A program made the position numbers and the translations under genes. From Branchiostoma floridae (Eukaryota > Chordata > Leptocardii > Amphioxiformes > Branchiostomatidae), in contig NC_049993.1 in assembly GCF_000003815.2 (NCBI RefSeq), forward strand, positions 16,512,897 through 16,576,896: DNA of 64,000 nucleotides. The letters run 5' to 3'. The notes beneath the pieces were generated by a model. The model saw nothing but the letters and a program-made list of their open reading frames with translations, was not told where the DNA came from and made no database searches. Of this stretch, positions 32,780 to 55,298 are shown one piece after another (position 1 is the first letter of the stretch; each line of letters opens with the position of its first letter).

Positions 32780-35700
32780 ATGGCTGCCGTAGGTAAGTAC
32801 AACAGCCGATCTGGCGACTTTATTTGCTGTCTAGTGAGTTCTTCTCTGTTCCCCATATTGTCTGCACCTAACCTAACCTTAAGTTGCATTAAGCTACATT
32901 ATTTCAATTTGTAGACCTAACTAAAGTGAACATGCGAAAGTTTATTTATGTGTTAATAATTGCATGGCACGGTGGTAAGCTGTGTCACGGTATGCGGGAC
33001 CGAGTATGTAACCAAATTCACCATTTTGTTTGCCTAATGGTAGGGGACTTTGTTACCACTCACAGCGCCATTGTCGAACAGTAAGCCGAACAGCTATCAC
33101 GGTGTGTTGGTAACAAGTGTATCACAAGTACTGTGTAAAGGAAGGGCTCGACAGCGATATGGGCTTTATACCTGCTGGTATCCAGTCAGATATTCTTCGT
33201 TATTCGCGTAGTCTGTCCAAGCCATACTATGTTTATCTATGCTGACGATAATGTCTTTCTAAAACACGTCTCAACTTTGATGTCCCGAAAAAGAACTACA
33301 GGCATACGAAGGATCATAGATCTACCTGGAATTCAAATTGATTCTAATTACTTATTTCTAACTAATTTCTAAACCTTTTCACGGTTTCACTTTCAGGTCT
33401 AATTCTTAGAAAAGTGACGTATTCAGGAGTTGTTATTAACTTAATAAGTCTTCTCAGTGCAATATTTCATTGAGTGGATACCTGAACTCCTTCAATGAGC
33501 CAGACTTTCTTTTCCTTTTTACAGACAAGGACACTCAGGTTAATAATCTATTTTAAAAGTGCCAAATACACAGACCAACCGGCTTGATGAGATAAAGGTA
33601 GACCCCCCCCCCAAGCCTTTTTGAGACGTAGTGGTAGTGTTGTTATCCACTTTGTTAAGGGCATGGTATTGGATTTTTACCATGGTCAATATTGACCGAA
33701 GGAGGCCATATATGTATTGGAAGGAGCCCATCCCTCTCCTTCCATCTTCCCGATAGGTAATTTTAAACAAATAGATGACGTAAGGAATTCGAAAGGAATG
33801 TGAAGTGCCTTTCCCAAAGGTACAAGATCCGTAGCATGGCAGGATTCGAACCTTGAACATCTCGGTTCTGGGCTAATTGACAGTTTGCACCCAGACCCAG
33901 ACAGGCGACACCGGCGGTACGGGGTCCATGACGTGAAAGGGCACTTTGCTGCTGACCTAAATGTTTATTGATTACGTGGTTATCTCGTTGCTAAGGTGAA
34001 ATCAAAGTGCACCTGTCAGCTTATAGTTATTGTTGAAAAGCCTGCGTAGGGCCAAGCTCGTAAAGGCTGTTCAAGCGGTACATACTGGAGACAGGAAGAA
34101 CAACAATGTCCCACATTCTTGGGTTGTTAAAACTCTGCACCGGTGATACAATTGGGCATAAGCAGTGGTACATTGCTCCAATCGTTGTTCTTTCTCACAG
34201 GGTTGTCTTCAGCTTTGATTTTGTCGGTCTCTCCAACTCTTTGTTTGCGAGCCCGTGTTGTTGTTTTGCTGTCATTTTACTGGGAGAAAAGTTACCCGGA
34301 CAATAAGGAGACACTGAGACCTGTACATGTAGTGATAGGGGTGTCACATGACTACATAAATATATAAAACTCTACAGGGAGTCGTTTGGAACAGATAAGC
34401 AGAATACGGAGTAAAGATTCAAATATACTTCTATGGACTTAAAGTGGTATTGAACCCCACCCCCGTCCATGTGCCTTAAACAGTTGTTGCCATCCAAGTA
34501 ATACCTTGCACATCTTGATTCAATATCACACCGATTTATTTCCCTAGCCTGTAGCTCATATAGGCAGAGTAGGAAGGGAGGGGGTGGGGGTGGGAGAGGG
34601 TGTCTGGAGGACCTGCCCCCTGTAATGACGTAACACAAATCTTTCTTTCTCAGAAGTCCCCCCGTATGACGTCCACCTGCCGTACGAAGGCGAGGCGTGC
34701 GGAGAGTTCATGTCCAGCAGGCTGATGGACCCTCTGGCTGCAGCCGGGTACAGGACCTACACAACCAAGTACTACCTACCCGGACAGGTGAGTGTTACAC
34801 CTACACAACCAAGTACTACCTACCCGGACAGGTGAGTGTTACACCTACACAACCAAGTACTACCTACCTGGACAGGTGAGTGTTACACCTACACAACCAA
34901 GTACTACCTACCCGGACAGGTGAGTGTTATACCTACACAACCAAGTACTACCTACCTGGGCAGGTGAGTGTTACACCTACACAACCAAGTACTACCTACC
35001 CGGACAGGTGAGTGTTACACCTACACAACCAAGTACTACCTACCTGGACAGGTGAGTGTTACACCTACACAACCAAGTACTACCTACCTGGACAGGTGAG
35101 TGTTACACCTACACAACCAAGTACTACCTACCCGGACAGGTGAGTGTTACACCTACACAACCAAGTACTACCTACCCGGGCAGGTGAGTGTTACACCTAC
35201 ACAACCAAGTACTACCTACCCGGGCAGGTGAGTGTTACACCTACACAACCAAGTACTACCTACCCGGGCAGGTGAGTGTTACATCTACACAACCAAGTAC
35301 TACCTACCCGGGCAGGTGAGTGTTACACCTACACAACCAAGTACTACCTACCCGGGCAGGTGAGTGTTACACCTACACAACCAAGTACTACCTACCCGGG
35401 CAGGTGAGTGTTACACCTACACAACCAAGTACTACCTACCCGGACAGGTGAGTGTTACACCTACACAACCAAGTACTATCTACCCGGGCAGGTGAGTGTT
35501 ACACCTACACAACCAAGTACTACTTACCTGGGCAGGTGAGTGTTACACCTACACAACCAAGTACTACCTACCTGGGCAGGTGAGTGTTACACCTACACAA
35601 CCAAGTACTACCTACCCGGACAGGTGAGTGTTACACCTACACAACCATGTACTACCTACCTGGACAGGTGAGTGTTACATCTACACAACCAAGTACTACC

Positions 35701-38700
35701 TACCTGGGCAGGTGAGTGTTACACCTACACAACCAAGTACTACCTACCAGGGCAGGTGAGTGTTACACCTACACAACCAAGTACTACCTANNNNNNNNNN
35801 NNNNNNNNNNNNNNNNNNNNNNNNNNNNNNNNNNNNNNNNNNNNNNNNNNNNNNNNNNNNNNNNNNNNNNNNNNNNNNNNNNNNNNNNNNCCAGATGAGT
35901 GTTACATCTACACAACCAAGTACTACCTACCTGGACAGGTGAGTGTTACACCTACACAACCAAGTACTACCTACCCGGACAGGTGAGTGTTACACCTACA
36001 CAACCAAGTACTACCTACCCGGACAGGTGAGTGTTACATCTACACAACCAAGTACTACCTACCTGGGCAGGTGAGTGTTACATCTACACAACCAAGTACT
36101 ACCTACCTGGGCAGGTGAGTGTTACACCTACACAACCAAGTACTACCTACCCGGACAGGTGAGTGTTACACCTACACAACCAAGTACTACCTACCCGGGC
36201 AGGTGAGTGTTACACCTACACAACCAAGTACTACCTACCCGGGCAGGTGAGTGTTACACCTACACAACCAAGTACTACCTACCCGGGCAGGTGAGTGTTA
36301 CACCTACACAACCAAGTACTACCTACCCGGACAGGTGAGTGTTACACCTACACAACCAAGTACTACCTACCTGGACAGGTGAGTGTTACATCTACACAAC
36401 CAAGTACTACCTACCTGGGCAGGTGAGTGTTACACCTACACAACCAAGTACTACCTACCAGGGCAGGTGAGTGTTACACCTACACAACCAAGTACTACCT
36501 ACCCGGACAGGTGAGTGTTACATCTACACAACCAAGTACTACCTACCTGGCCAGATGAGTGTTACATCTACACAACCAAGTACTACCTACCTGGACAGGT
36601 GAGTGTTACACCTACACAACCAAGTACTACCTACCCGGACAGGTGAGTGTTACACCTACACAACCAAGTACTACCTACCCGGACAGGTGAGTGTTACATC
36701 TACACAACCAAGTACTACCTACCTGGGCAGGTGAGTGTTACATCTACACAACCAAGTACTACCTACCTGGACAGGTGAGTGTTACACCTACACAACCAAG
36801 TACTACCTACCTGGGCAGGTGCGTGTTACAGCACCCACACAATCAAGTACTACCTACCTGGACAGGTGAGTGTTACACCTACACAACCAAGTACTACCTA
36901 CCTGGGCAGGTGAGTGTTACACCTACACAACCAAGTACTACCTACCCGGGCAGGTGAGTGTTACATCTACACAACCAAGTACTACTTACCCGGGCAGGTG
37001 AGTGTTACACTACACAACCAAGTACTACCTACCCGGGCAGGTGAGTGTTACACCTACACAACCAAGTACTACCTACCCGGACAGGTGAGTGTTACACCTA
37101 CACAACCAAGTACTATCTACCCGGGCAGGTGAGTGTTACACCTACACAACCAAGTAGTACTTACTCGGACAGGTGAGGGGTGTATCTACTCCACCAAGTA
37201 GTACTTACTTGGGGAGGTGAGTGTTGTATCTACTCAACCAACTAGTACTTACTTGGAGAGGAGATGATTGTAACTACTCAACCAAGTAGTACTTACTTGG
37301 GGAGCAGGTGAGTGTAGCACCTACACAATCAAGTACTACCTACCTGGACAGGTGAGTGTTACACCTACACAACCAAGTACTACCTACCTGGGCAGGTGAG
37401 TGTTACACCTACACAACCAAGTACTACCTACCCGGGCAGGTGAGTGTTACATCTACACAACCAAGTACTACTTACCCGGGCAGGTGAGTGTTACACTTAC
37501 ACAACCAAGTACTACCCACCTGGACAGGTGAGTGTTACACCTACACAACCAAGTACTACCTACCTGGACAGGTGAGTGTTACACCTACACAACCAAGTAC
37601 TATCTACCCGGGCAGGTGAGTGTTACACCTACACAACCAAGTACTACCTACCCGGACAGGTGAGTGTTACATCTACACAACCAAGTACTACCTACCTGGA
37701 CAGGTGAGTGTTACACCTACACAACCAAGTACTACCTACCTGGACAGGTGAGTGTTACATCTACACAACCAAGTACTACCTACCTGGACAGGTGAGTGTT
37801 ACACCTACACAACCAAGTACTATCTACCCGGGCAGGTGAGTTTATCATGTCTATATATGAATCGTGCAATTTTCTTTACCCTAGTATCAACGATTGCATC
37901 GTCAAATACATCATCATCCATTTATTCATCCATCTATTCAATCATTCATTCCTCCTATCTACCTCCCTCCCTGCATCCATCCATCCATCCCTCCCTCCCT
38001 GCCTAAACCCATCCATACCATGATGCCAAGCACTGTTTAAGCTGACTTGTACTTGTTTTCCCTACTACGTTGAAACTTTGACAAACAGCAAACATCCATC
38101 CATTGATTCATTCCTGAAAGTAAAGATCATATCATTGTAAATATCCGTAATATTGATTGCAGCCTCTGTTGGATGAGTTCATCAAGGGTGTACAGCAGAG
38201 CAGAGTCACGGTCCTGCCGCTGTGTCAGACCTTCATGGCTTCTCAGTACTACTGGTACGTCATGTTGTATTAGTTACCTCTTTAATATGTAAATAGTGTA
38301 ATGTAGGGTCTAATAGCGTTATCATTTTTACCTCAATGAAAAATAGAGGTATCGTTTTTGGTGCGCAATGGTGTGTGGATGGATATTTGTGACCAGCATA
38401 ACTTTAGAACCCCTAGATGGACTGTCATGATGTCTGGTATGTGAATAGGGGTTGGGAAGACGAAGGTCGATTTTAGGCCCTCTGTGGGACCTTAGCACTG
38501 CAGCATGCTAGCAGAACTTTAGTGTTTTGAATCTTTCGTCCTAGACATGCTATGGTCCTGTTATGCATTGTGATTGTGCTATTAGACCAACATTTGGCAG
38601 TTATATGGAAATTCACACTTCAACTCCAATTCACAGGTACGTGGAAAACAGCATCCACGACCGCAGCGTCATCAGAGAAGGCTCCGTCATCTTCGTCAGG

Positions 38701-40536
38701 ATGGAGGAGGACTGCTCTCTGTCTCAGAAACTCAAGCCGTTCGGGTTTCTGGACTTCACCACGGACGCTGCGTATGAGGAGGCGTACCCACGACTTCTAC
38801 GCACGCTAGGTCCTCCATGTACGTGTCCTAATGAGCTGTCTTGCTTATTTTATCAATCAGTATCCAATGATGACAGGGCCGACCGGGCATAAAAAAAGAT
38901 CTCCATGCAGAGTAAAAACTGTTTAGTCTGGGTCATAAGGTGACATTTTTTCTCGCGCCTCTTTTTGGACATTGCTTGACGGATGAAATCACTCAGAAAT
39001 ATCTTACTACCCCTGTCACATTATCCACGATCTTCGGGCGTATCGTTGGAAGATCGGCCATGTTTAAGATCGACAGAAGGTTGCGCGTATTTTCCACCTG
39101 AAAACCGTCCCTGTCACATATAAACCGTACTTTGTACATTGTACAATTGTTGTGCAATAAAGTTACTTTTATAAGCGAGGCTCGGGCGATTGCCGCAGAA
39201 TCGTCGTCCGATCCATCTTCCAAATGTGACAGGGTTATTACAAGTGACGACATGGTTTAGTAAGGTTGACGTAGCCAGACGCAGTTCCTAGCCCCTAGAT
39301 AATTATTCCAGTGAAATTTATCAATAACAGCTTTCCAACCGGAGGCCAACCGTAATTGTAGTAACCGTTTCTCAAGTAAATGTATATTTCTTCATCCAGC
39401 CTCAGCCCCCCAAATGCAACAGCACCCAACGACTCGCGCTGACGAAATTTACGACGACGACACTTACGACGACGTCTTCGTCAACAACGACGTTGACGAA
39501 GACCAGCAAATGCCGAGAAGTAATTTCGTCCACGCCACGCACCGGACCTTTGACGCCATGGGCCCGCAGATCCACACCGACTTGGTGGAGCCAGAAAAGG
39601 CATTGCTGTCGGCATGCAAAGGTTGTGAGAAGTTGTTTATTTAAAAAAAAAAGTTAAACGTTGTGCTGACCGTGATGAGATGACAGTTTAAGATTGACAA
39701 ACTCTATATGCTGCCAGTTCTATAGAATGTCACTTGATTGCTTTTCAAGTATTTATGGGTTTCAAACAACACGGTCTTGACATTCAGTGTCGTATATTTG
39801 GTTGAACATTTGGATAAGTAGCAAATAGTAGAGTTTAGCAAAGCGAAGAGGTGATCTTAAGCATTTGAGTCATCTAGCCAGGAGAAGTCGGTGGAACCTT
39901 TGATGGGTCGTCACTGAATGTTTATGAATAATCAGTCAGAAGAAACATCAACTTAAGATTAAGTAAGTTTTATACTGACCATGGTATCTCAGGTTTGCTA
40001 TTACCTACTATATCACATCGCCCAAGAACATACACCAGCTGAAATTATTTTTTTCCTTTTCTCTCCAGAGTTCGAATGGTCCGAGTGGTCCCTGAAGGCG
40101 TTCTGTCAGGACCCGGACAGCTACATCCAGCGGGTACAGAAGATCACTCCGCCGCTGAGAGATGACGTGGAAAAGGTAACTACAGCTAGATATTTCCTAT
40201 CATCATACCTAGCTGGTGCTTATGAATGGAATTCCTTCATCCACTCAGTACTGTCGTTGCACAGGGCTCCTGGAAATCAGTTGCCTTGAAGTGTAGAAAG
40301 TGTTCTGAAGACCAATAAAGAACATACATCTATAAACATCTACTAAGAGCTACAGACATCTCAGGCAAACTAGGGTTGAAAGAAGACCGCCGTATGTACT
40401 GGACAAAAGATACAAACCCGGAAATTCTGCTTCAGTACCAAGGTCAGTCGCCTGTGGAGGAGCAAAATAGACCTTTGCGTTTAGTCACATACTAGATAAC
40501 TTTACGTCCAATTTAAAGGCTCTTACGTTGTTGCCC

Positions 40537-40582
<46 letters not shown>

Positions 40583-43500
40583 GCAAGAGAATGAAAATAT
40601 GCAGGAGGAAAGACTGACAAGAAAGAAACTGCACCACTTTCCGTCCACAGGTCCTGCTCCTGGCCATCCTGCCCCAGCAGCAGACCCACCGAGGCAGCTG
40701 CATCACCCTGGCGAAGCTCAGCTGCTGCGGGCTGCCCAGGGTGGAGGGTCAGGCGCTGGAGGCGCTCCTGACTGTGAGTAATGATGGGCGTTTTGGTTAA
40801 ACTAAACATAAACGCTACATATAGTCTTGGCTTGCTGTAATTAAAACAAAGAAATCTAAAACTCCAACATGGCTTCTGCAAAAATTGACGGAAACCAACA
40901 CTGGTGTAGACTTTTAATATTGCAATGTTTTGTTAATTTAGAACGCATAGGCCCATTTAACACAACAAAATAAGTCCCATATTACATATAAAGCAAGGCA
41001 ACACAGACGAAACTCTTCAATCCATAATGTGACCGTGGGCGGAACGCAACATGACACAGCAGTGGCATCATTGTGAAAGGTAAAGATAGGCACAACAGGA
41101 ATGATTTCGTATGGCATAACATGTGTATAGTTTTATCAGCTGACAATATTCTCCTATTTCCTTTCCACAGGTCATTCATCAGAACATATTAAATCAAGGC
41201 ACAGACTACGCCGAGTCTGGCGGTCTCAGTGACGTCACGAAGGAGGTGCTGTACGTCCTGTCCAATAGGGACGCCCTGAGACAGTGGACGCGCGGGACCA
41301 CCCTGCTGCGGATCCAGGTGTGCTGCGTCTTGCTCATCTGCCTGCACGTTTCATACGTCAACGGCGACGTCGGGCTGGAGTTTTCTGCGGAAGAACTGAA
41401 GAAAACTCAGAACGTAATCAAGCACAAGATTGAAACCTTCGATGCGACAGATCTGAGGTTCAGGTAAGAGCGTGTCCTATTATTGATAGGTTCAAAAGAT
41501 TGCAGTGTAGTCAATGTTATAAGGTACCATCTCAATCTGTGGCCTAGTTGGTTTCAACACAAGCATGTGTCTTCCTTTTTCAGATGCTGTAAATTGTTAC
41601 ATGCCATTCTTTTCCAGATGCCTTGCCGATTACTACATCCACACGATCTACGAAGCCTCCAAGCGGATCGCTGGCAAGTCGGTCGGAAAGTTCAAAGAAC
41701 TAGTGATCCAGGTAAGTCAGTAAGTTATATCTTTTTATTTTAGATTGAAGAAAATATACAGATAAAAATGAGCTTTCCTGTTGAACATTAAACCAATCCT
41801 TCAATCTACCCGGTTCTTGAATAGCCATTGTCAACACAGTTATGTGAAATTTACGATGCCCGAAGCATCTTCTTTTACTAACCTGAGCATTGTTCATTTA
41901 TCTCGTTGCAGGCAAGAGATGTTAGCAGTACCAAAGACCCCAAAACTGCTAAACAACTTGTGAAAGACATCTGCAAAGCCGAAGAGTACGACCAACAGAT
42001 CGTGTTGTCATATCTCGCCGACATGGCAAGTCCATCTCCATCTTGTGCCAAAACATGGATCTAAGTTAGACATTCTTTAGCATATACATGAAAGCAAGAT
42101 TTCCTAAGTGCAATTTTTGCAAATAAGGTATATTGATCGTGGACATTATTCCGAGTATAGATAGCTAGGCAAATGCTGAAATGGCGCATATAACGGATCC
42201 AACAGTTGGGATATTTCATGAAAAGGGGCAATCATCGACGACTGTTGAGTCTTAATGGCAGTAGATATATGAAGCTGAAACAAGTGAGATCATTCTGTAG
42301 TCAGCTAACTCCTTTTCTACGACCGCAGGACCATGAAGACATGATGCATATTACTTTGGAGGATGTAACCTTTATCATACTCTACTCTACTCTACTCTAC
42401 TCTCTCTAATAGGCGTATGATTCAGAGACTGCCCTGGAAATCTTCCAGCGGGCAGTGTGCAAGCTCGCCCAGACGTGCAGCGGCTCCAGGGCGGACCGGC
42501 TCTTCATCCTCACCGCCGACATGTTCGTCAGGATCCTGCAGACCACAAAGAGATCAGGTACTGAAAACTAAACCATGGAAGAAGAGATTTCGACTTTGTG
42601 CTAAAGCACAATAGATCGGCGCAACAAGACCTTCATTCATCCAAAAACATCCACTAGCATATACTACGAAGCATTCGCCCCAGACCGTCGCACGAACTTG
42701 AAGTGTCATATAGAATTGCCGAGTAGGCTGTAACAGACACAACCATCGATAAAGACCTAAGACAGCCTTGTGTTCAAACATGGAGGACATCCGTTCCTAT
42801 TTCCTATTATGGCTGGAACATCATTACAGTTACTGTTAAGCTTTTCAGAATCAGACCGTTTGACGCCAAATATATTATCCCTATTATAAAAACAGAAAAC
42901 TGAGAAGGGTGGAGAAAACTGATTGGCAGACATTCTGAGCTTCCCAAACTGTTAGATAGTTAGACTGAGGGATAGATGATCCTGCAGCCATAGAAAAAAA
43001 GTAAGGCCTCATCAAACTCTTTTTTTTTCAGATCTCTGCTCCATGGCACTTCGACCTCCTCCTCCGCACGGAAAGAGGAAGAAGCTGCTGGGTCTAGCCG
43101 AGCTCTGGTACGAGCAGCAGTTCAACCTGGGCACCGCGCGGCTGGCTGTGGAGGTCCTCTGTAGACCGCTGCTACATCATCCGCATGTAAGGGGACACAG
43201 GCTCTTACAAACTGTCTCTTTTATGAATACATGTTTCTAAGGAAGACAACATTCTACTGTACCTTTCATTGTATCTGACAGCGTTACCTGTATTTGCATC
43301 TATGGATACACTGTCTGTAGTATGATAGAGTCGATGTAGCTATTGTAAGAAATTTATTTGCCCCAATTGGTTGGAAAAACCATTGCCGAACCGTAATGAA
43401 GAAACAGTTCCCTCTAGTTGGAAGAATCTGCTGAACATACAATGATTATGCATGTATACTGTCTGTTCTTATGACCATGTAACTGTATTTCCCACCAGCC

Positions 43501-43721
43501 TGAAGTTCGTGAGACCATGGCTCGCCGTCTAGCAATGCGGCAGGGAAGACGTGCGGACGACATCATCATTGAGTGGGAGGACCTGGTTCCTATTGAGGTA
43601 GGTACTTTTCCGAGGAAGATGTTCTTCATTTTTGGCTACTTGTCTTTGGCAATTAGTGTGTTTTCAGATTGTATGAAGAGAGATAGAAAGAGAGTGGAAA
43701 GAAGAGAAAAGCAAAGGAGAC

Positions 43722-43777
<56 letters not shown>

Positions 43778-46700: not shown

Positions 46701-49700
46701 TGTAGGCGTAGTCACCAAGCAAATTCTTGGTTTTTCTTGTATACATCAAAAAGGGTTACAGTATTCTTAATGGTCCACCAACTTGATTAAGAACGATGTC
46801 ATTGTTGGTTTTCTCTCATGTAGGTGTGGAACACATAGATGATATCCATCCTCCGCCTCGGCTGTCTCCTAACCAGTCAACACGGCCAGAAAGGGTAAGA
46901 AATCTATACTCCTTACTTCATCAAAGAGCATCGGTATGTAAACTCCATAGATGGATATATATTGATTTCGATGTATCTTAAACTACCTTACGTTCCAAGA
47001 CATGTATGGCACAGCTTCAATATAGCGATGCCTTTGTTTTCTAGGGAATCCCAAGGAATTTGGAGACACAGATCAACAGTGAAACAGGTAAAATGTATTT
47101 TCACTCTGATAATGCTTACAGGTAACTGTCAGCAAGGAAGAAATCAAACGACGCTGTGAACACTTGCAAATCAAAGACATTTTAGCATAATGTTAAGGGC
47201 ATTCTGTCTTACAAACTTTCAAGTGACCAGCGCTAGCGTGTAACTGCACACATAGCTGTCAATGCGACTGCACTCGTGGAAAGATTACAGTTTCAAAAGT
47301 TGTGTCTTTTTACATTTCAGAAGTCCCCGGGACTGAATACAAGATCGAAAAGGTACTACACATTATCCATTCACTGATATCTTTAAAATTTCACAAGATA
47401 TCAATTTAGTTTACCTGGATGCTGACGTAATTATCATTTTCCTTTCGCATTTTACAGGGGAAGTTTCCCTGCTCTGCAAGTGAGATACTTGCCTACGACC
47501 AGCCCAACGAACAGGGGGTACGTAACAACATCGTGAAATATGTATCTGATCTCATTTATCTGATCTCTGTGGGAGGCAAATGTAATACAGACAAAGGTAT
47601 AGTTGGTAAAAAGTATTCTGTCCAATGATTGTGTCAAACAAACCCATACATGTATTTACAAAAAGAAAACACACAGTTACCAAACTGGGTATGATCAAGA
47701 CATGGGCCTGTGCCGTGAGATGTTGTATTGATCTCTGGGGGTCACATCTTTGTTGTTTATTTGCTTAAATTATCTTACACGTCTAAACAAATCAAATGTA
47801 AAAGATCCTCTTTACAAAAAAATCTAATTGTGGACTTATAATTAACATTGAAACCTTCATTATTCTTCCATTCTACCCCAGGAGGAGTTCCTGCTGTTGA
47901 AAGACGGACAAGTTCCTTCCGTCGACAGACGGAGGAAGGAGATGCTGCTGAGGCTAGATCACGTGAACATCAGACGGGTCATGGACATCGTCATCAACGG
48001 CAACCACGTCAAACAGGTAACGCCGAATTATCACTCCGCACAACGATGTGAAACATTGTTTTCTTATGTATTTCTGTATACCTGTATGTGTTTCTGTGCC
48101 TTTATAACTTGCACTATCAAATATGATGGTAGACTTCACAATTGCCAAGTCACCCTTGGCCGCTTCATCGCCTCTTAAGGCTAAAGCCAAGCCAAGTAGA
48201 CGCAAGCCCCCCAAACAGAAATTAAAAACATGTGTTATAAATTTCCAGGGCATACGCAACAAAACTGCTGATCTAGCAGCATGCTTAGACCAGCATTCTC
48301 CAGATATTATACTAGGCTCAGAAACACATCTAAATGACTCAGTTGGCAGTAGTGAACTTTTCCCCCCAGACTATACCGTCATAAGGAAAGACAGAGAACT
48401 GGGGAGAAAGGGAGGGGGTGTTCTCCTTGCCTACAAGAACGACTTGATAGTTACACATAGATTAGATCTAGACACTGAGTGTGAAACGGTATGGGCAACC
48501 TTGGAGATCCAAGGAGCCAAACCGATTACAATTGGTTCTTGTTACAGATCGCATACTTATGCAAAAGACATTGACTTTGTAGATAAACTGAGAGCCTCAT
48601 TAAACAAGATTAAACCACAAGGTGGCCAAGTATGGCTAGGGGGGGATCTCAATTTCCCTGGTATAGACTGGAACAACTTAAGTGTGAGCCCAAGCGCTCC
48701 CTATAGTGCACTTTCTAAACATTTTTTAGAGTTAACACATGACTTTGGGCTCGAACAGGTTGTGGATCAACCAACCCGTCTTAATAACACCCTTGATCTT
48801 TTCTTAACTAATAATTCATCACTTGTTGAAACTTGTTCTCTGATCCCAGGTATAGGGGACCATGATGGCATCCCAGTTATTACTGTTAATGTTAAACCTA
48901 AGAAAATCAAACAAAGCCCCAGGCGTGTTTCACTTTGGAAAAAAGCTGATGAAACCGCCATAAGAACTGAGCTACAGGATTACAGTAATAATTTAGCTAA
49001 ACGGAACATTGACAACTGCACAACAGAAGAGCTTTATAATGAATTTGTGGACAAAATCAAGATAGTGATGGACAAATATGTCCCATCCAAAACTATTAAC
49101 AATAATAATTTTTCACCTTGGATTAACAACAAGGTTAGGAAAATACATAAGAAAAAACAGCGAGCCTACAACTCTTATCGTAAAAACCCAACAACCGAGA
49201 ACTTGACTAAATTCCGCACTATTCGCAAACGAGCAAAAAAGACTACCAGACAAAACTACCGTAAATATGTCAATTCTATATGTTCTGATTCCCCCAAGAA
49301 GTTTTGGTCGCACATCAAACACTTAAAACAGGATACAACTGGGATCCCTAGTCTTAAGCAGAAAGGAAAGCTAGAAACAGATAACAGAAACAAAGCTAAC
49401 ATCCTTAACAACCAATTCAGCTCTGTCTTTACACGAGAGGATGAACACATGCCCCGCCTCCCCCGTAGTTCTATCCCCACTATGCCTGACTTTTCCATCA
49501 ATGTAAACGGAGTCACCAAACTCCTAAAAGATCTGAATCCACACAAAGCAAGTGGACCAGACGGCCTACCAACAAGGATCCTCAAACTAGCAGCTGCTGA
49601 GTTAGCCCCTGCTCTGACTATTATTTGTCAGAAATCACTTGAAACTGGCCAAATCCCTTCCCCATGGCTACATGCCAATATCTCTCCCATCTTTAAAAAG

Positions 49701-52700
49701 GGGGACAGGACTGATCCTGCAAATTACCGTCCTGTTTCTCTCACATGTGTTTGTAGTAAGGTTATGGAGCACATAGTGCAATCACAGATGATGGATCATT
49801 TTGACAAATACTCTATATTATCTGACAAGCAGCATGGGTTTAGGAAAAAGCGTTCATGTGAAACCCAACTTATTTTAACTACAACTGACTTAGCCCATTC
49901 TTTAGATACCAGGTCGCAAACAGATATGATTATAACCGACTTCGCAAAAGCTTTTGACAAAGTACCTCATGATCGCTTACTCCTAAAACTCCAAAATTAT
50001 GGTATTAGGGGTAAGGTTCTCCACTGGATTTCTAATTTCCTCAAAAATCGTAAACAAAGAGTGGTAGTTGGGGGAGAGCACTCAGAGTGGGCAGAGGTAG
50101 TCTCTGGAGTGCCCCAGGGCACTGTGCTCGGACCACTACTGTTCTTAGTGTACATTAACGACTTAGCCGACAACCTCAACTCTAACATCCGTCTCTTTGC
50201 GGATGACTGCGTCATTTACAGGGAGATAAACAGTGACAGAGATCACACCCTCTTACAAGAGGACATCAATACATTAGATACATGGCAAAACACATGGCAG
50301 ATGAAATTACACCCGGACAAATGTTTTGTTATGCGTTATACCCACAAACGTAAACCTAAACTCTACGACTACAAATTAGGAAGTCATGTTCTAGCCGAGA
50401 CTAACAACCACAAATACTTAGGAGTCACACTCAACAACCAGCTCTCTTGGTCACAACACATACAGTACAGTGCTTCCAAGGCTAACAAGACGTTAGGCTT
50501 TGTGAGACGCAATCTTTATAACTGCCCCAAATCAGTCAAAACAAATGCATATACATCCCTTGTTAGACCGCATTTAGAGTATTCCAGCGCTGCCTGGGAT
50601 CCATACCACAAAGAGCACATTGCTAAGTTAGAGTCCGTTCAAAAAAGAGCGGCTAGATTTGTCACAAATTCGTATCATAGTTATGATAGTGTCACCAAAC
50701 TTGTCTCTGATTTGGGGTGGGACACTTTACGCAACAGAAGGACAGCAAATAGATTAACAATTCTACAGAAAGCAAGACACCACAAAGTAGCCCTACCGGT
50801 CGAAACTCATCTAAAGCCTGTACCGCGCCAATCGCGACACTCAAACCCAAATTCTTACAAGGCTCTACCTTTTCACAAAGACTGCTACAAACATTCCTTC
50901 TTCCCACAAACCGTGAGAGATTGGAACTCTTTACCGTACGAGGTCACGGAGATCACAGACGCTCCAAAGTTCAAGGAGGCAGTTCTCCAACGCCTCAGGG
51001 AACATTAAGGCGCAGCACTCCCCCTGGACGCTCTGCCCCAACTGAGGGGCGTTGTCCAGTACCCAATCAAGATCAAGTGTCATCTCTGAATGCCTAATTT
51101 ATTCTACATTGACCAATGATTATCTACAATGCAAAAATTGGCAGCTGAGGTATCTGTTGAAACATTACTCTGAGCTGCCGAATAAGTTGAGACATTCAGG
51201 TAATAGGATACACGATATGTAAAGACAACAGCCACTCATAGTCAAGCAAAAACATTGGCGAAAAAAAAAAACTTTGGAAACTTTATTCAGCCCATTATAA
51301 TTAGCCACCTACATCAAAATGTAGGCAGCTAATCTTCTTGGATTGTTAATAAATAGATAAATAAACAAGACATACAAACAACATAAAATAGATAAAGAGT
51401 GAGTGAGTGAGTGCTATCTTAGACGTCACAGCTGATCGTTAACAATTATATTAGTCTGTCCAGTTGCTCGAGTACCTTGTGTATCTGATCATGAGGCCTG
51501 GCTTCTTTTAAGATAAATGTTGTACATAAATAACTTTTCTCAAGCATCCTTGGTATCTTTTTGCAGATGTCACAAGTTTTTGCAGGGGGTCAGCTAACCC
51601 TTTTGGCTGCAGCTAGAGACAAGCGACTGTCCGTTGACGACATGGTTCGGTGCCTGAGCCAAGTGGCGGACGCCATGGCCTTCGCGCACGGGACTCTCCT
51701 CAAGGGAGAGGGCGTCATCCACTGTGACCTGCGGGCCATGTACGTCATCTGTGATGGACAGCACGTAAGTACAACGTCTCTGCCTCTCCGTACACACCGA
51801 TCTCGACGTGTGCTTTGATGAAGGTCTTTAACCACATACCGGTCACCCTCCCCCAACAAAGATCAGCTTGATGATTAGAATGAATCACCGGGAGGATGCA
51901 AAGAACGGAACTTAAGGCAAATGTTACGAGAGGCATTGCAGCTGTAGTTGGCAATTACCTCTAGGATCAAGCAGTTTCAAGCAGCTTTGCAATCGTCATA
52001 CCTCTAACAAAAGAGAGCGTATCGTGTATACATGTACTAGTCAGTCATGTGTAACTGTAGCTATCCCAATGTGTGACACAAACTCTGCAATTTCATGAAG
52101 TCGAACTTCTACTTCTGCCTTGCAGGTAAAGGTTGGTAGGTGGGGCCGTGCCAGCCGCCTGCGGCTCCGCTTGTATGACACCAAGCTGTCCGAAAGTGTG
52201 GTGACCAAGCCCATGCCTCAAGACGCCCTGAGATGGTATGTTAGATCTACACAAAATGACCGTACTCTTCTGTAAAAAATGTTATTGCGAGAACAAAATA
52301 CATGATAGTACTTCTGTCGGCTGTTATATTATTTGGCCGTGTTGTTCTGTCCAAACCATATCTATCAAGTCTTGGATTGATATTTGGTTTACAGTTTACC
52401 AGACCTAAATTTGGCGATAGAATTCACTGAATCTATGAAGCACATTTCTGTCTGTAATGCCCTGCAGGTCACCGATGGAAGTGATAGAAAGCGGGATCTA
52501 CTCGCAGGGCAGTGACGTCTTCACGTTCGGACAGGTGTGCTGGGAGGTGTTCCACGCCTACAACGCGGACAGAGGCAGCGAGAACAGGATGCTGGCGCCC
52601 TACCCTTACCTCAAGGCGTTAGAGGTGAGTGTGCGTGTGTGTTACAGTCAATAACGTAAAAGCTTTGCCTTTGCATGCGTGATAGAACTGGGATGCAAAG

Positions 52701-55298
52701 TAAATACTAGTAGCAAGCCCATATTTCTATTTTCGCTTGTCACTCTTCTTTTCAATTGTTCTGTCGTAAAAAAAAAGCTAAAAGAAACTGGTTCAATGTC
52801 TGCTAAGTTATTTGTTCCTTGTTGGCACAAAACCTGATTGGGCGGAGCTTTTTGTAGCCTTTGAACCAAACTTTGCGATCCCAAGGGCCGTTCAAAGAGA
52901 GTTTATGTTACATGGATTAAGAAGAGGCGTCTGAAGTAGTATGTTTTCGCACCGTGGAACACACACTCGGTTCGAATTACGTCAAATGGAACATGATGGA
53001 AGGTGGTTCGGGTTCTAAAATGATCTGGAACTTTTGACCACCTTTTCTTCCCAAGCAGATGAATCATTGCTCTTTCCTGTCCAGGTCCTGCCGTACCTGC
53101 AGCGCAGACAGAGGCCCCTCCAGCCGTGCGACTGCCCCGACTGGCTGTACCGCCTCATGAAGCTATGCTGGCTGGACGAGCGCAGCCGCCGCCCGGGCTT
53201 CGACAAGATCGCGGCCTGCTTCAAAAGGTGAGAGGTGGAATTTTATGGATTTAGGAACGCCCATCAGGAGCAAAGAAAAGTAACCAAACGCCGTCACCAC
53301 TCACCCTTAATTCGTAATGTTGAGTCATAACGGCCTGCAGGCCAATTTGAGCTTCTCAATGAATAAATAAAAGATTGAACAAATAACGGGGTAATAGCTA
53401 TAACGTTATAATATCTAGGAAAATTTGATACGCTATACTACCCTCAGTCATATGCTAGACGTCGTTGAACTATCCTACTCAAGGATTTTTCTCTCAATAA
53501 TCATAAACTTCTGATGCAAAAACTTTTTGCCAAATACCCATAGCAGAGGTAATGGTAAATTACTGACTGTTGAAAGACTATCAGGTGGTAACACAGTTTT
53601 CTGCCACAGTAATGTAATGATAAGCTTCTTACAAACTAACAGGATAGGGCCTAAAAGAGAACTGCCTGCTGTAAAATATATTTTGCCATCTATTTCAGTC
53701 CATCTACATCGCCAATGTTGGACATTGGTGACGACGGAACTTACAAGAAACGGGCTCCTGGTGGAAACGAAGAGAGCCTGAACGCGGCACTGAACCACCA
53801 AGACCGCCACTATTTCCGCCAGGGTCTGCTCCAGAGCAATACCGACTACGCCACAAAGCACGGCATCGGCAGCTACTGGGTGTGGGACACCGATAACATG
53901 TCGCAGGGCAGCGCCGACACATTCTACACCATGACGTCAGACCAAACGGTCGACACCGTCAGCAGCGACCTAACATCCGGGACCTGGCAGTCTGCAGAGT
54001 CGCGGTCAAGGGCGGGAACTGACAGCACACGGTTGTCTGAAGGTAGCCAAAGCTCCTCTCCAATAGAAGATCTCGTGGAATACACAACATTGGACTTGCA
54101 ATCAGACCAATCGGTCGCAGGATCAAGTCGTAAGAGCTCTCGAGGACAAGAAGTCATTTATAACAATTCGCTCAGCATGGCACCTCTTGTTGCCGAGTTG
54201 AGTGCCCAACTGCAAGGGGCACAACCAACAAATGCCGCAGAGAACGATGCAGACGACACTAGTGATGCCGTCACTCTGGAAGACGAGGCAAAAGAAGAAT
54301 CAGAAATAAGGCTTCTTCGAAAAACGTCATTCCTAAACCCTTCCTACGAAAGCAATGCACCTACCCGTTTCCAGGGGATGCAGGAAAGCGTGAACATGGC
54401 TAGACCTGAAAATCCAGCATCCAGTTTGGTGGGAACAAACTCTCCAAACACTGGCGATAAGGGCAAAGCAAATGATGACGCGGACTATTACACGAAGTTA
54501 GTTCGTCCTGCTTCAAGCAGTAGTACGCATAGCGTACCCTCACCTAACCACAGAGGCGAAGGCTACACTAACCAGCCCAAGCTTCCGTCACGGCCTCCCG
54601 TCCCTCCACGCCCATCGACGATGGCAACAAGCCCTGAAGGACAGAAAGGGAGCGGCTCAGCAGCTGTGATGACGTCACGCGAGGACACGCCACCTCCCCC
54701 GGTCCCACCACGCGTTATCCTGAACTCGGCAGATACGGAGGACACCCAAGACGACCCACCGTACGCAGACGTCCGCGTGCGACGTAAGAGCCAAGATGCA
54801 GTATCCCCCGCCCACATAACACGTCCCCTAAGTAGGTGCGACCTCAACAACATGCAGCACGACAGAGGAAGTCAGGAATGGAACCAGGAGTCATCCAGCT
54901 GCCCCTCGTCCATTGCCAGCCCCATCGGCCCGAACGCGTCGAGGCTCAGAGTACACTCCGACACCTCGTTGTCGTCGCAGGATTCGTCGTACTTCGGAAG
55001 CAGCCAGGAGAGTGTTGCGATGACTTCGAACCAGAATTCACCAGTGACACCAGTGAATGGGACGAAAGGTGTTGTGGCAAAGATCAAGAAAGTGAAAGGC
55101 AGCGTAAGGAGAAAGTTTAGCCGTAAAAAGGGTAGCGACCAGGGAGACAGAGCTGGAGGGGCACGTGGTGAGGGGGTGTTTCGCTACACGTCAGAAGAAG
55201 CTGATGCTAGAAACCGGAAGAGCACATCCTCAGCCTATAGTGACTATAGAGACACTGACGCCAACTCCGACCAGGAAGAGTTTGACACTAGGCTTTAA
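32780..55298 (+). CDS. TIR - helical region - tandem tyrosine-type pseudokinases - docking tail, 1,755 aa, 28 exons
   Basis: Exons: 32780-32792, 34654-34787, 38163-38254, 38637-38818, 39400-39621, 40069-40175, 40651-40773, 41171-41463, 41618-41711, 41912-42025, 42413-42557, 43032-43186, 43499-43597, 43973-44104, 44406-44588, 44900-45191, 45646-45824, 46232-46391, 46824-46894, 47045-47087, 47321-47352, 47458-47517, 47882-48016, 51567-51764, 52126-52235, 52468-52624, 53085-53227, 53699-55298. All phases agree (5,268 nt). Start MAAVEVPPYDVH in a good context (accATGG-like). Domains: TIR 7-135; acidic linker 141-214; helical region 215-590 without a family I recognise; kinase-like 1 605-905; kinase-like 2 956-1222; tail 1223-1755 ending DTRL. 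Neither kinase-like unit keeps a DFG Asp. By analogy with TIR adaptors and tandem pseudokinases it is probably a cytosolic scaffold in innate signalling; that role is inference. I know of no named protein with this order. Confidence 0.85.
33590..33870 (-). mobile_element. tRNA-derived SINE-like element
   Basis: Read on the minus strand, it contains a perfect Pol III B box (GGTTCGAATCC at 33842-33852). This is followed by CCTTTGGGAAAGGCACTTCA and further non-coding sequence ending near a (G)n stretch at 33601-33612. The A box side is eroded. The layout fits a deuterostome tRNA-SINE; the family name is left open and the ends are approximate. It lies in intron 1 of the TIR gene. Confidence 0.5.
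34756..37842 (+). repeat. 44-bp minisatellite made of an exon end plus its splice donor, about 70 copies
   Basis: The unit is the last 33 bases of exon 34654-34787 (acctacacaac, caagtactacctacc, cggacag) plus the first 11 bases of the intron (gtgagtgttac). The first copy is the real exon-intron border at 34787/34788. The rest fill the first 3 kb of the intron, so about 70 potential GTGAGT donors follow one another. Variation is mostly cccgg/cctgg, gac/ggc and cct/tct. Units at 37140-37310 are degenerate. The array contains an assembly gap. Confidence 0.95.
35791..35890. other. Assembly gap of 100 N inside the minisatellite
   Basis: Exactly 100 N, the conventional size for a gap of unknown length. 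Comparison of the flanks with the array 660 bp downstream predicts 49 missing bases (see findings). Confidence 0.95.
38330..38505 (+). repeat. Possible dispersed repeat in intron 3 of the TIR gene
   Basis: A block with cctcaatgaaaaatagagg (a small hairpin), gtgaccagcataactttaga and acccctagatggactgtcat resembles a repeat type that I recall as common in marine invertebrate genomes. Only one copy is in this window, so the call rests on memory. Confidence 0.3.
39011..39234. mobile_element. MITE family D-like element (TIR CCCTGTCACA)
   Basis: CCCTGTCACATTATCCACGA on the left and TGTGACAGGG on the right are inverted ends 224 bp apart, with inner pairing of cgatcttc/gaagatcg-like words. The end is shared with the AAGCCCCTGTCACA family elsewhere in the window. 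It lies in intron 4 of the TIR gene. Confidence 0.65.
40542..40580. repeat. (CA)n microsatellite
   Basis: About 19 uninterrupted CA units, 70 bases before the acceptor of exon 40651-40773. Confidence 0.95.
42026..42412 (+). other. GC-AG intron of the TIR-pseudokinase gene
   Basis: The exon ending ...CTCGCCGACATG is followed by GCAAGT, not GTAAGT. The next exon (GCGTATGATTC, 42413) follows an AG preceded by a ctcta-rich tract. Phase 0 on both sides preserves the reading frame. GC-AG introns are a known minor class processed by the major spliceosome, and the otherwise perfect ATG/GCAAGT match fits that class. The tract just before the acceptor contains a (TACTC)n run. Confidence 0.75.
43723..43870. 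repeat. (GA)n microsatellite and GA-rich tract
   Basis: About 25 uninterrupted GA units are flanked by imperfect GA-rich sequence. The apparent Arg/Glu-rich and Ser/Leu-rich frames here are its translations and not genes. Confidence 0.9.
43973..46391 (+). other. First kinase-like domain (tyrosine-kinase type, degenerate)
   Basis: Residues about 605-905. The glycine loop is reduced to VVWKG, with no GxGxxG. VAVK keeps the beta-3 lysine (635). The helix-C glutamate position appears to be Asn (RNNVRML). HRDVIARNFLV (HRD 744-746, Asn 751) is intact, and its ARN is the tyrosine-kinase form. The DFG position reads NFN (767-769), removing the metal-binding Asp. KLWTAPES (APE 806-808) and SDVWMLG (819-825) are typical of tyrosine kinases. 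Loss of the DFG Asp and glycine loop suggests no phosphotransfer, though ATP binding through K635 and N751 is conceivable. Confidence 0.75.
48123..51008 (+). CDS. LINE endonuclease/reverse transcriptase, 961 aa, intact
   Basis: The protein copies its own RNA into DNA at a nicked target. The N-terminal apurinic-type endonuclease shows NFQGIRNK, GSETHL (E67), GSCYRS, GGDLNFPGIDW (D175) and GDHDG (D246, H247). The reverse transcriptase shows PANYRPVSLT, KQHGFRKKRSC, DFAKAFDKVPHDRL (first catalytic Asp 606), GVPQGTVLGPLLFLVYIND and FADDCVIY (692-695), followed by the thumb. No stop or frameshift interrupts it, so the copy is young or under selection. The order and motif spelling fit the CR1/jockey group; clade assignment needs a tree. 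The start ATG is the first in frame, and a few upstream bases may belong to the element. Confidence 0.93.
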   Translation: MMVDFTIAKSPLAASSPLKAKAKPSRRKPPKQKLKTCVINFQGIRNKTADLAACLDQHSPDIILGSETHLNDSVGSSELFPPDYTVIRKDRELGRKGGGVLLAYKNDLIVTHRLDLDTECETVWATLEIQGAKPITIGSCYRSHTYAKDIDFVDKLRASLNKIKPQGGQVWLGGDLNFPGIDWNNLSVSPSAPYSALSKHFLELTHDFGLEQVVDQPTRLNNTLDLFLTNNSSLVETCSLIPGIGDHDGIPVITVNVKPKKIKQSPRRVSLWKKADETAIRTELQDYSNNLAKRNIDNCTTEELYNEFVDKIKIVMDKYVPSKTINNNNFSPWINNKVRKIHKKKQRAYNSYRKNPTTENLTKFRTIRKRAKKTTRQNYRKYVNSICSDSPKKFWSHIKHLKQDTTGIPSLKQKGKLETDNRNKANILNNQFSSVFTREDEHMPRLPRSSIPTMPDFSINVNGVTKLLKDLNPHKASGPDGLPTRILKLAAAELAPALTIICQKSLETGQIPSPWLHANISPIFKKGDRTDPANYRPVSLTCVCSKVMEHIVQSQMMDHFDKYSILSDKQHGFRKKRSCETQLILTTTDLAHSLDTRSQTDMIITDFAKAFDKVPHDRLLLKLQNYGIRGKVLHWISNFLKNRKQRVVVGGEHSEWAEVVSGVPQGTVLGPLLFLVYINDLADNLNSNIRLFADDCVIYREINSDRDHTLLQEDINTLDTWQNTWQMKLHPDKCFVMRYTHKRKPKLYDYKLGSHVLAETNNHKYLGVTLNNQLSWSQHIQYSASKANKTLGFVRRNLYNCPKSVKTNAYTSLVRPHLEYSSAAWDPYHKEHIAKLESVQKRAARFVTNSYHSYDSVTKLVSDLGWDTLRNRRTANRLTILQKARHHKVALPVETHLKPVPRQSRHSNPNSYKALPFHKDCYKHSFFPQTVRDWNSLPYEVTEITDAPKFKEAVLQRLREH
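51300..51333. other. Hairpin near the LINE 3' end
   Basis: attagccacctacat and atgtaggcagctaat are inverted repeats (13 of 15 pairs) around a four-base loop, followed within 20 bases by the AT-rich repeat tail. This is the position where CR1/L2-type elements carry the stem-loop recognised by their reverse transcriptase. It is possible that the hairpin belongs to a separate small repeat. Confidence 0.5.
53699..55298 (+). other. C-terminal docking tail of the TIR-pseudokinase protein (single large exon)
   Basis: A 533-residue Ser/Pro/Asp-rich, probably disordered tail. Visible short motifs: VEYTTL (Y1351), which fits the ITIM pattern (V/I/L/S)xYxx(L/V/I); VIYNNS, NPSYES, DYYTKLV and PPYADV as further tyrosine sites; RPPVPPRP (about 1521-1528) and PPPPVPPR (1554-1561) as SH3 ligands; a basic KIKKVKGSVRRKFSRKK patch near the end that could bind membranes; and the C-terminal DTRL, a class I PDZ ligand. 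Motifs are seen directly; partners are inferred. Confidence 0.7.

What the first reader, a model, noticed from the sequence alone, without database searches (positions are those of the whole stretch)
32780..55298. A TIR domain fused to two tandem tyrosine-type pseudokinases and a docking tail
Seen: 28 exons whose phases close to one 1,755-codon frame, with a TIR domain at the N terminus, two kinase-like domains with tyrosine-kinase spelling (HRDxxARN, RPxF), and a tail with SH3, ITIM-like and PDZ motifs. Known: JAK kinases pair a pseudokinase with a kinase, and TIR adaptors signal without kinases. Inference: this is a TIR-nucleated scaffold that joins the two logics in one chain. I know of no named protein with this order, so it is the best candidate here for an undescribed signalling system.
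Basis: partly seen in the sequence, partly recalled or inferred. Interest (0 to 1): 0.92.

Follow-up and report, generated by a model that had tools for sequence, protein, structure and literature searches.

The report
TIR protein with two dead kinases
A lancelet-like genome carries a small family of immune-type signalling genes that join a TIR domain, a helical domain and kinase folds that have lost a key catalytic residue, so they probably act as docking scaffolds rather than enzymes.

Summary
I rebuilt the 28-exon model independently and got the same 1,755-codon frame. Pfam supports an N-terminal TIR (TIR_2, 33.4 bits, cut-off 28) and two tyrosine-kinase-type domains (E 1e-35, 2e-29). New evidence: the same genome holds three diverged relatives, C12 (TIR-helical-KD1-KD2), C4 (helical-KD1-KD2, no TIR found within 16 kb upstream) and C6 (TIR-helical-KD1 plus a tyrosine-rich tail). 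At eight KD1-to-KD2 junctions every intron phase I could read in C12 and C4 equals the window gene's, which makes a two-gene error unlikely. The DFG aspartate is lost in KD1 of 4 of 4 members and in KD2 of 3 of 3, so both domains are predicted pseudokinases and the strict 'JAK logic' does not apply. The helical block is ARM-like only at borderline. Of five tail motifs counted, only the SH3 type exceeds chance. TIR-kinase fusions are already in print (choanoflagellate 'Kinase TIRs', lancelet LRR-TIR-Kinase), so this is a new variant. No transcript data were available.

The parts
32780..32792 (+). exon 1 (coding part, MAAV); least certain exon
   Evidence: rests on ATG, GTAAGT donor and phase only
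34654..34787 (+). exon 2, TIR first third
34755..37841 (+). 44-bp x about 70 minisatellite; duplicates the end of exon 2 together with its 5' splice site (62 exact CAG/GTGAGT copies); interrupted by a 100-N gap
38163..38254 (+). exon 3, TIR middle
38637..38818 (+). exon 4, TIR last third
39400..39621 (+). exon 5, acidic linker with YDDDT and YDDVF
40069..40175 (+). exon 6, helical block begins (aa 215)
40651..40773 (+). exon 7, helical block
41171..41463 (+). exon 8, helical block; folded alone gives five helices at low confidence
41618..41711 (+). exon 9, helical block
41912..42025 (+). exon 10, helical block; GC donor
42413..42557 (+). exon 11, helical block
43032..43186 (+). exon 12, helical block
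43499..43597 (+). exon 13, helical block ends
43973..44104 (+). exon 14, KD1 N-lobe, VAVK lysine
44406..44588 (+). exon 15, KD1 alpha-C region (Glu replaced by Asn)
44900..45191 (+). exon 16, KD1 HRDVIARN and NFN in place of DFG
45646..45824 (+). exon 17, KD1 APE to SDVW
46232..46391 (+). exon 18, KD1 end
46824..46894 (+). exon 19, linker
47045..47087 (+). exon 20, linker
47321..47352 (+). exon 21, linker
47458..47517 (+). exon 22, KD2 degenerate N-lobe
47882..48016 (+). exon 23, KD2 N-lobe
51567..51764 (+). exon 24, KD2 HCDLRAMY
52126..52235 (+). exon 25, KD2 GRW in place of DFG, then YDTKLSES
52468..52624 (+). exon 26, KD2 WSPMEVI to F helix
53085..53227 (+). exon 27, KD2 end (RPGF)
53699..55298 (+). 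exon 28, 533-residue Ser-rich tail with 3 SH3-type motifs, stop codon

Best explanation
The window holds one gene of a small family (four loci found in this genome) that encodes TIR - helical, perhaps ARM-like block - tyrosine-kinase-type pseudokinase 1 - pseudokinase 2 - Ser-rich tail. Shown: the domains, their order, the intron-phase match with paralogs, and the loss of catalytic residues in the members read. Inferred: the protein is a cytosolic signalling scaffold. The TIR domain joins TIR assemblies (receptors or other TIR adaptors), the helical block regulates or adds contacts, and the pseudokinases serve as allosteric or docking modules rather than as enzymes. The tail recruits SH3 partners, and in the C6 member perhaps SH2 partners. 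It would connect TIR assembly to tyrosine-kinase-type signalling without its own phosphotransfer.
For: 28 exons close to 1,755 codons. TIR_2 and two PF07714 domains pass curated cut-offs. C12: TIR_2 37.3 bits, helical block, KD1 171.1 bits, KD2 99.8 bits in the same order on one strand; C6: TIR_2 44.5 bits, helical block, KD1 132.1 bits; C4: KD1 153.8 and KD2 93.9 bits. A TIR exon lies about 1.4 kb upstream of the helical block at both C12 and C6; with 149 TIR_2 matches in 513 Mb, and ignoring their clustering, a same-strand TIR within 10 kb has a chance of about 0.0015 per locus. Intron phases match at all eight KD1-to-KD2 junctions wherever a side was read. DFG Asp lost in KD1 4 of 4 (N, G, G, N) and KD2 3 of 3 (G); KD2 catalytic Asn lost 3 of 3. 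Four PF07714 kinases of the same genome, all that were read of eight held, keep HRD...N and DFG. KD1s and KD2s form separate groups in the tree (KD2 100/99, KD1 66/71). The C4 helical block scores 26.9 bits against ELMO_ARM (cut-off 27.0). SH3 motifs exceed chance.
Against: No transcript was available. No KD2 was found in C6 by profile to about 10 kb downstream and no TIR within 16 kb upstream of C4 (an assembly gap lies there), so the four-part order is seen in 2 of 4 members. The C6 helical block is only 18% identical to the window's and finds no other member by itself; its kinship rests mainly on position and KD1. KD1 of the window gene and of C6 keeps the HRD aspartate and the ATP-binding lysine, and some kinases with altered motifs are known (recalled) to keep weak activity or nucleotide binding. 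The helical block has no solved relative by sequence; its ARM likeness is below cut-off. ITIM, YxN, [KR]xxPxxP and YxxP are not above chance. No partner or pathway is shown.
Confidence: 0.6

Rival explanations
1. KD1 is still a working, unconventional kinase: it keeps the VAVK lysine, the HRD aspartate and the catalytic asparagine, so the protein is a TIR-activated kinase like an IRAK in one chain.
For: KD1 of the window gene keeps Lys, HRD Asp and Asn; C6 keeps Lys, Glu, HRD Asp and Asn and of these motifs lacks only the DFG Asp (NFG).
Against: The DFG Asp is lost in 4 of 4 members; C12 reads HRN and C4 reads HRM; the window gene also lost the alpha-C Glu. Such a pattern across paralogs fits a fold kept without catalysis.
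Confidence: 0.2
2. The TIR domain is an NAD-cleaving enzyme as in SARM1, and the helical and pseudokinase parts gate it.
For: A perhaps ARM-like helical block beside a TIR, as in SARM1. In the window gene a Glu (YWYVE) lies near the place of the catalytic Glu (position recalled).
Against: At that place C12 reads WQFKQ and C6 YKLFH, so 2 of 3 TIR-bearing members lack it. The alignment there is ambiguous by one residue.
Confidence: 0.1
3. Two neighbouring genes (TIR protein and kinase protein) were read as one.
For: Introns of 3.4 kb (after exon 2) and 3.6 kb (after exon 23); no cDNA was available; C4 has no TIR found upstream.
Against: TIR followed by helical block and KD1 recurs at C12 and C6. 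Phases close across all 28 exons and no stop intervenes.
Confidence: 0.06
4. The gene is a decaying pseudogene.
For: The 44-bp minisatellite copies dozens of decoy splice donors into intron 2 and only the first keeps the TIR open and in phase; the window KD1 has also lost the alpha-C Glu that its three relatives keep.
Against: No internal stop or frameshift in 1,755 codons; the coding frame is favoured in 19 of 26 exons; similar minisatellites in other amphioxus genes are reported not to interfere with regular splicing (PMC3087553, passages read).
Confidence: 0.04

Closest known systems
Choanoflagellate 'Kinase TIRs' and 'Kinase TLRs' (Richter et al. 2018, PMC6040629; passages read)
   Same: TIR and kinase domain in one chain, proposed to bypass recruitment of a separate kinase.
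   Different: Described as unique to choanoflagellates and written in the order kinase then TIR; here TIR comes first, the kinase domains are two and predicted dead, with a helical block between. Their study included Branchiostoma floridae.
Lancelet RIPK2-like LRR-TIR-Kinase proteins (PMC11747288; one passage read)
   Same: TIR and kinase combined in a lancelet.
   Different: Reported as RIPK2 homologues with LRRs; here the kinases match tyrosine kinases best among the 60 solved chains listed and Pfam shows no LRR. I could not compare the sequences.
SARM1 (ARM-SAM-SAM-TIR; order recalled)
   Same: TIR with a helical domain that may be ARM-like.
   Different: Order reversed, no SAM domain, kinase folds added, TIR glutamate not conserved in the family.
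Janus kinases (recalled)
   Same: Two kinase folds of tyrosine-kinase type in tandem.
   Different: JAK has FERM and SH2 and an active C-terminal kinase; none of these is found here.
Amphioxus TIR domain combinations (PMC2575513; passages read)
   Same: 28 TIR combinations reported in amphioxus, 20 specific to it.
   Different: The passages I read name no TIR-kinase combination; the supplementary lists could not be opened.
Plant TIR groups 16 and 21 (PMC7075850; passages read)
   Different: The same paper elsewhere describes group 16 as TIR with a P-loop NTPase; plants only.

Membership tests
TIR domain (Pfam TIR_2) | profile score over curated cut-off | tested here: met
   33.4 bits against 28; paralogs C12 37.3 and C6 44.5; the sister model PF01582 is missed by the window gene (19.6 against 21.3) and met by C12 and C6
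TIR domain (Pfam TIR_2) | TIR-TIR assembly | not testable with these tools
   needs protein
TIR NADase (SARM1-like) | catalytic Glu conserved | tested here: inconclusive
   window gene has a Glu within about one residue of the place (recalled); 2 of 3 TIR-bearing members lack it
Protein kinase fold (PF07714) | profile score over cut-off | tested here: met
   KD1 123.8, KD2 103.3 bits against 23.1
Active protein kinase | DFG aspartate | tested here: not met
   KD1 NFN, KD2 GRW; lost in 4 of 4 KD1 and 3 of 3 KD2
Active protein kinase | HRD aspartate and catalytic Asn | tested here: inconclusive
   KD1 keeps both; KD2 reads HCD with Asn replaced by Tyr
Active protein kinase | beta-3 Lys and alpha-C Glu | tested here: not met
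   KD1 Lys kept, Glu replaced by Asn
Janus kinase | FERM and SH2 domains before the kinases | tested here: not met
   no such Pfam match in the pieces that cover the protein
Janus kinase | active second kinase | tested here: not met
   KD2 lacks DFG Asp and catalytic Asn
Choanoflagellate Kinase TIR | TIR plus kinase domain in one chain | tested here: met
Choanoflagellate Kinase TIR | no transmembrane segment | not tested
   no membrane predictor was run
Choanoflagellate Kinase TIR | homology to those proteins | not testable with these tools
   no choanoflagellate sequences held
SARM1 | SAM domains and ARM-then-TIR order | tested here: not met
   no SAM in Pfam; TIR is N-terminal
ARM-like helical domain | profile score over cut-off | tested here: inconclusive
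   ELMO_ARM 26.9 against 27.0 in C4, just under; no ARM-type model near its cut-off in the other 3

The most novel reading that the evidence does not exclude
A chordate TIR pathway that passes its signal through tandem dead tyrosine kinases: TIR assembly rearranges a helical-pseudokinase platform that recruits separate tyrosine kinases and SH3/SH2 adaptors, bypassing both MyD88-IRAK phosphorylation and TIR NADase activity. In the window member, the share of TIR-bearing protein is set by competition among some 60 tandem copies of one splice donor, only the first of which keeps the TIR open and in phase.
Probability: 0.25. Interest if true: 0.78.

Novelty: new variant of a known kind. Interest (0 to 1): 0.55.

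Why it matters
Animal TIR signalling is thought (recalled) to reach kinases by recruitment through death domains. A chordate family that builds kinase folds, dead in every member read, into the TIR protein itself would be a natural experiment in non-catalytic immune signalling. It also puts a TIR-kinase architecture in a chordate, whereas PMC6040629 described its kinase-TIR architectures as unique to choanoflagellates in a study that included Branchiostoma floridae. Because the four paralogs differ in which parts they keep, they allow direct tests of what each part does.

Tried and rejected
Tried without result: sequence search of the helical block against solved structures, alone and as a four-member profile (best E 2.1 and 0.27). 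Folding exon 8 alone gave mean pLDDT 49.5 with five helices and no strand, too weak to use as evidence of a fold. A first tree without reference kinases was replaced by one with four.

Rejected: JAK membership (no FERM or SH2, no active kinase). Two-gene reading (TIR-helical-KD1 order recurs at C12 and C6). ITIM claim (chance level). C2:21.2 Mb was fetched as a possible relative because of a KD2 match; it showed only kinase matches, including ordinary HRDLAARN spelling, and no helical block, and was dropped.

Limits and errors of my own tests. The window model was first built with two exon ends off by one base and corrected. The codon table was trained on the longest + strand frame of eight loci, of which four lie on the minus strand, so 622 of its 3,617 codons come from frames that are probably not coding. 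For the same reason only 4 of 8 control kinases were read. In one search about the first 29 residues of the C12 KD1 query were typed in a wrong frame; searches use the right one. One junction of the C4 KD1 (before GIQEE) is a guess. Paralog exon borders were picked by hand with the window gene in view. Introns outside the KD1-to-KD2 stretch are often not shared: the helical block is a few long exons in C4, C6 and C12 but eight exons here, and KD1 N-lobe introns differ. The four-locus count is a lower bound: the tool scores only its best candidates, the C4 helical block found C12 but neither the window gene nor C6, and that of C6 found only itself. The window's own TIR, split over three exons, is not among the 149 matches. 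A 100-N gap lies upstream of the C4 helical block (X run), where a TIR exon could hide.

Full report
What was checked. The window is G000:C15:16512897-16576896 of a 513-Mb assembly in 431 contigs. I rebuilt the gene from the raw sequence and obtained 28 exons, 5,268 nt with the stop and 1,755 codons, with all phases closed, 26 GT-AG introns and one GC-AG intron.

Domains. Pfam was run over the protein in overlapping pieces. TIR_2 passes its cut-off (33.4 against 28 bits); the sister model TIR is just below (19.6 against 21.3). KD1 and KD2 both pass PF07714 by a wide margin. Among the 60 solved chains listed, KD1 is nearest to a Src-Abl ancestor, Eph, EGFR and Abl kinases (1,586 matched) and KD2 to EGFR, Lck, Met and Eph (583 matched), so both are of tyrosine-kinase type. 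The TIR itself finds plant and TLR2 TIRs only weakly (best E 0.0027). The stretch between TIR and KD1 has no Pfam match near cut-off in the window gene and no solved relative.

A family, not a singleton. Searching the same genome with the helical block gave nine matches: eight in the window gene and one on C12 (E 0.006). KD1 gave 127 matches; the best outside the window is on C6 (E 4.5e-19), and two exons on C12 and one on C4 are also present. Reading those places showed three relatives. C12 carries TIR, helical block, KD1 and KD2 in that order. C4 carries helical block, KD1 and KD2; no TIR was found within 16 kb upstream, where an assembly gap lies. C6 carries TIR, helical block and KD1, then tail exons with DEYDDTIQQ, DDYDDTIQQ and YQEL/YQTL spellings up to a stop; a KD2 profile found no second kinase there to about 10 kb downstream. 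Pfam cut-offs are passed by the TIRs of C12 and C6, the KD1 of C12, C4 and C6 and the KD2 of C12 and C4. Searches with the helical blocks of C4 and C6 found no fifth member, but they also missed known ones, so four is a lower bound.

Shared gene structure. From the KD1 C-lobe to the end of KD2 I compared eight junctions of the window gene with those of the paralogs. C12: seven read on both sides and one on the donor side only; C4: five read on both sides and three on one side. Every phase read equals that of the window gene (1, 0, 1, 0, 0, 2, 0, 2). At protein identities of 29 to 39% this is strong support for the splice model there and for common descent of the tandem arrangement. In the helical block and the KD1 N-lobe, introns are often not shared.

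Catalysis. Aligned KD1s: the beta-3 lysine is present in 4 of 4. The alpha-C glutamate is present in 3 of 4 (Asn in the window gene). The HRD aspartate is present in 2 of 4 (window gene and C6; Asn in C12, Met in C4). The DFG aspartate is present in 0 of 4 (Asn, Gly, Gly, Asn). KD2: DFG becomes GR(W/L/F) in 3 of 3 and the catalytic asparagine becomes Tyr or His in 3 of 3, while a YDxxxSES motif and W-S-P-x-E-V are kept in 3 of 3. Four ordinary kinases of the same genome keep HRD...N and DFG, 4 of 4 (the other four control loci lie on the other strand and were not read). In a tree with these four, KD2s group with support 100/99 and KD1s weakly (66/71), apart from each other. So the tandem pair predates the split of C15, C12 and C4, and the loss of the DFG aspartate is shared by all members read. 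This argues for a retained pseudokinase role rather than recent decay. It also removes the JAK analogy in the strict sense, since no member read has an active partner domain in the chain.

TIR and helical block. The C12 and C6 TIRs have classical BB-loop spelling (RDFTPG, RDFIPG); the window gene has TKYYLPG. The place of the NADase glutamate (recalled from SARM1 and plant TIRs) holds an acid near by in the window gene but Gln in C12 and His in C6, so an enzymatic TIR is not a family trait. The C4 helical block reaches 26.9 bits against ELMO_ARM (cut-off 27.0), and the window block gives weak hits to ARM and HEAT models far below cut-off. Exon 8 alone was modelled as five helices but at pLDDT 49.5. 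I read the block as an ARM-like solenoid, not proven.

Tail. Three class-II SH3 motifs against 0.26 expected (P 0.002 before allowing for five motifs tried); ITIM-like, YxN, [KR]xxPxxP and YxxP are not above chance; TRL at the C terminus is compatible with a PDZ ligand.

How it most likely works. Shown: architecture, family, loss of catalytic residues. Inferred: TIR-driven recruitment to TIR assemblies, pseudokinases as docking or allosteric modules, tail as adaptor bait.

Literature. Richter et al. 2018 (PMC6040629, passages) describe choanoflagellate 'Kinase TIRs' and call the kinase-TIR architectures unique to choanoflagellates in a study that included B. floridae. PMC11747288 (one passage) mentions lancelet LRR-TIR-Kinase RIPK2-like proteins. 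PMC2575513 (passages) reports 28 amphioxus TIR combinations, 20 of them specific, without naming a kinase one in the text I read. PMC7075850 (passages) uses the word kinase once, for plant TIR groups. PMC8662651 (term counts and passages) does not contain the word TIR in its main text. PMC12373286 and PMC6526094 (passages) describe no such protein in what I saw. Two likely papers, one on amphioxus tyrosine kinases and one (recalled) on its immune genes, were not held, so print coverage is incomplete. My searches for this order found no description.

The minisatellite. Intron 2 begins with a 44-bp unit repeated about 70 times that copies the end of exon 2 with its donor. There are 62 exact CAG/GTGAGT copies against 3 in the rest of the window, and only the first gives an open, in-phase TIR; the second stays open but is out of phase. 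Such 'mirages' are known in amphioxus genes and reported not to interfere with regular splicing (PMC3087553, passages). A 100-N gap inside the array means that its true length is unknown.

Verdict. Real, well supported, and a new variant of TIR-kinase fusion: interesting as a chordate family with kinase folds dead in every member read, but not a categorically new system.

Noticed in passing
34755-37841: 44-bp minisatellite (about 70 copies) that duplicates the end of the first TIR exon with its 5' splice site: 62 exact tandem donors, only the first of which keeps the TIR open and in phase. A known amphioxus phenomenon ('mirage'), here next to an immune-type domain; the array contains an assembly gap.
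   Followed up: partly
48108-51008: A 966-residue open frame with endonuclease and reverse transcriptase domains (non-LTR retrotransposon) in intron 23 of the gene.
   Followed up: partly
L044 and L045 (C6 paralog; tail exons in L045 122-2118): The C6 paralog tail carries repeated acidic tyrosine exons (DEYDDTIQQ, DDYDDTIQQ) and two close YxxL motifs (YQEL, YQTL) with ITAM-like but short spacing.
   Followed up: no
10952-12826: Open frame with DUF6729 (267 bits) after a Ser/Thr-rich repeat stretch; perhaps part of a mobile element.
   Followed up: no
8475-8852 (-): Sub-threshold TspO/MBR match (17.2 bits, cut-off 24), perhaps one exon of a TSPO-like gene.
   Followed up: no
G000:C16:4.04-4.11 Mb and G000:C8:24.4-25.0 Mb: Groups of open TIR frames (148 to 217 codons) that were the nearest TIRs to the window's own TIR in its genome.
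   Followed up: no
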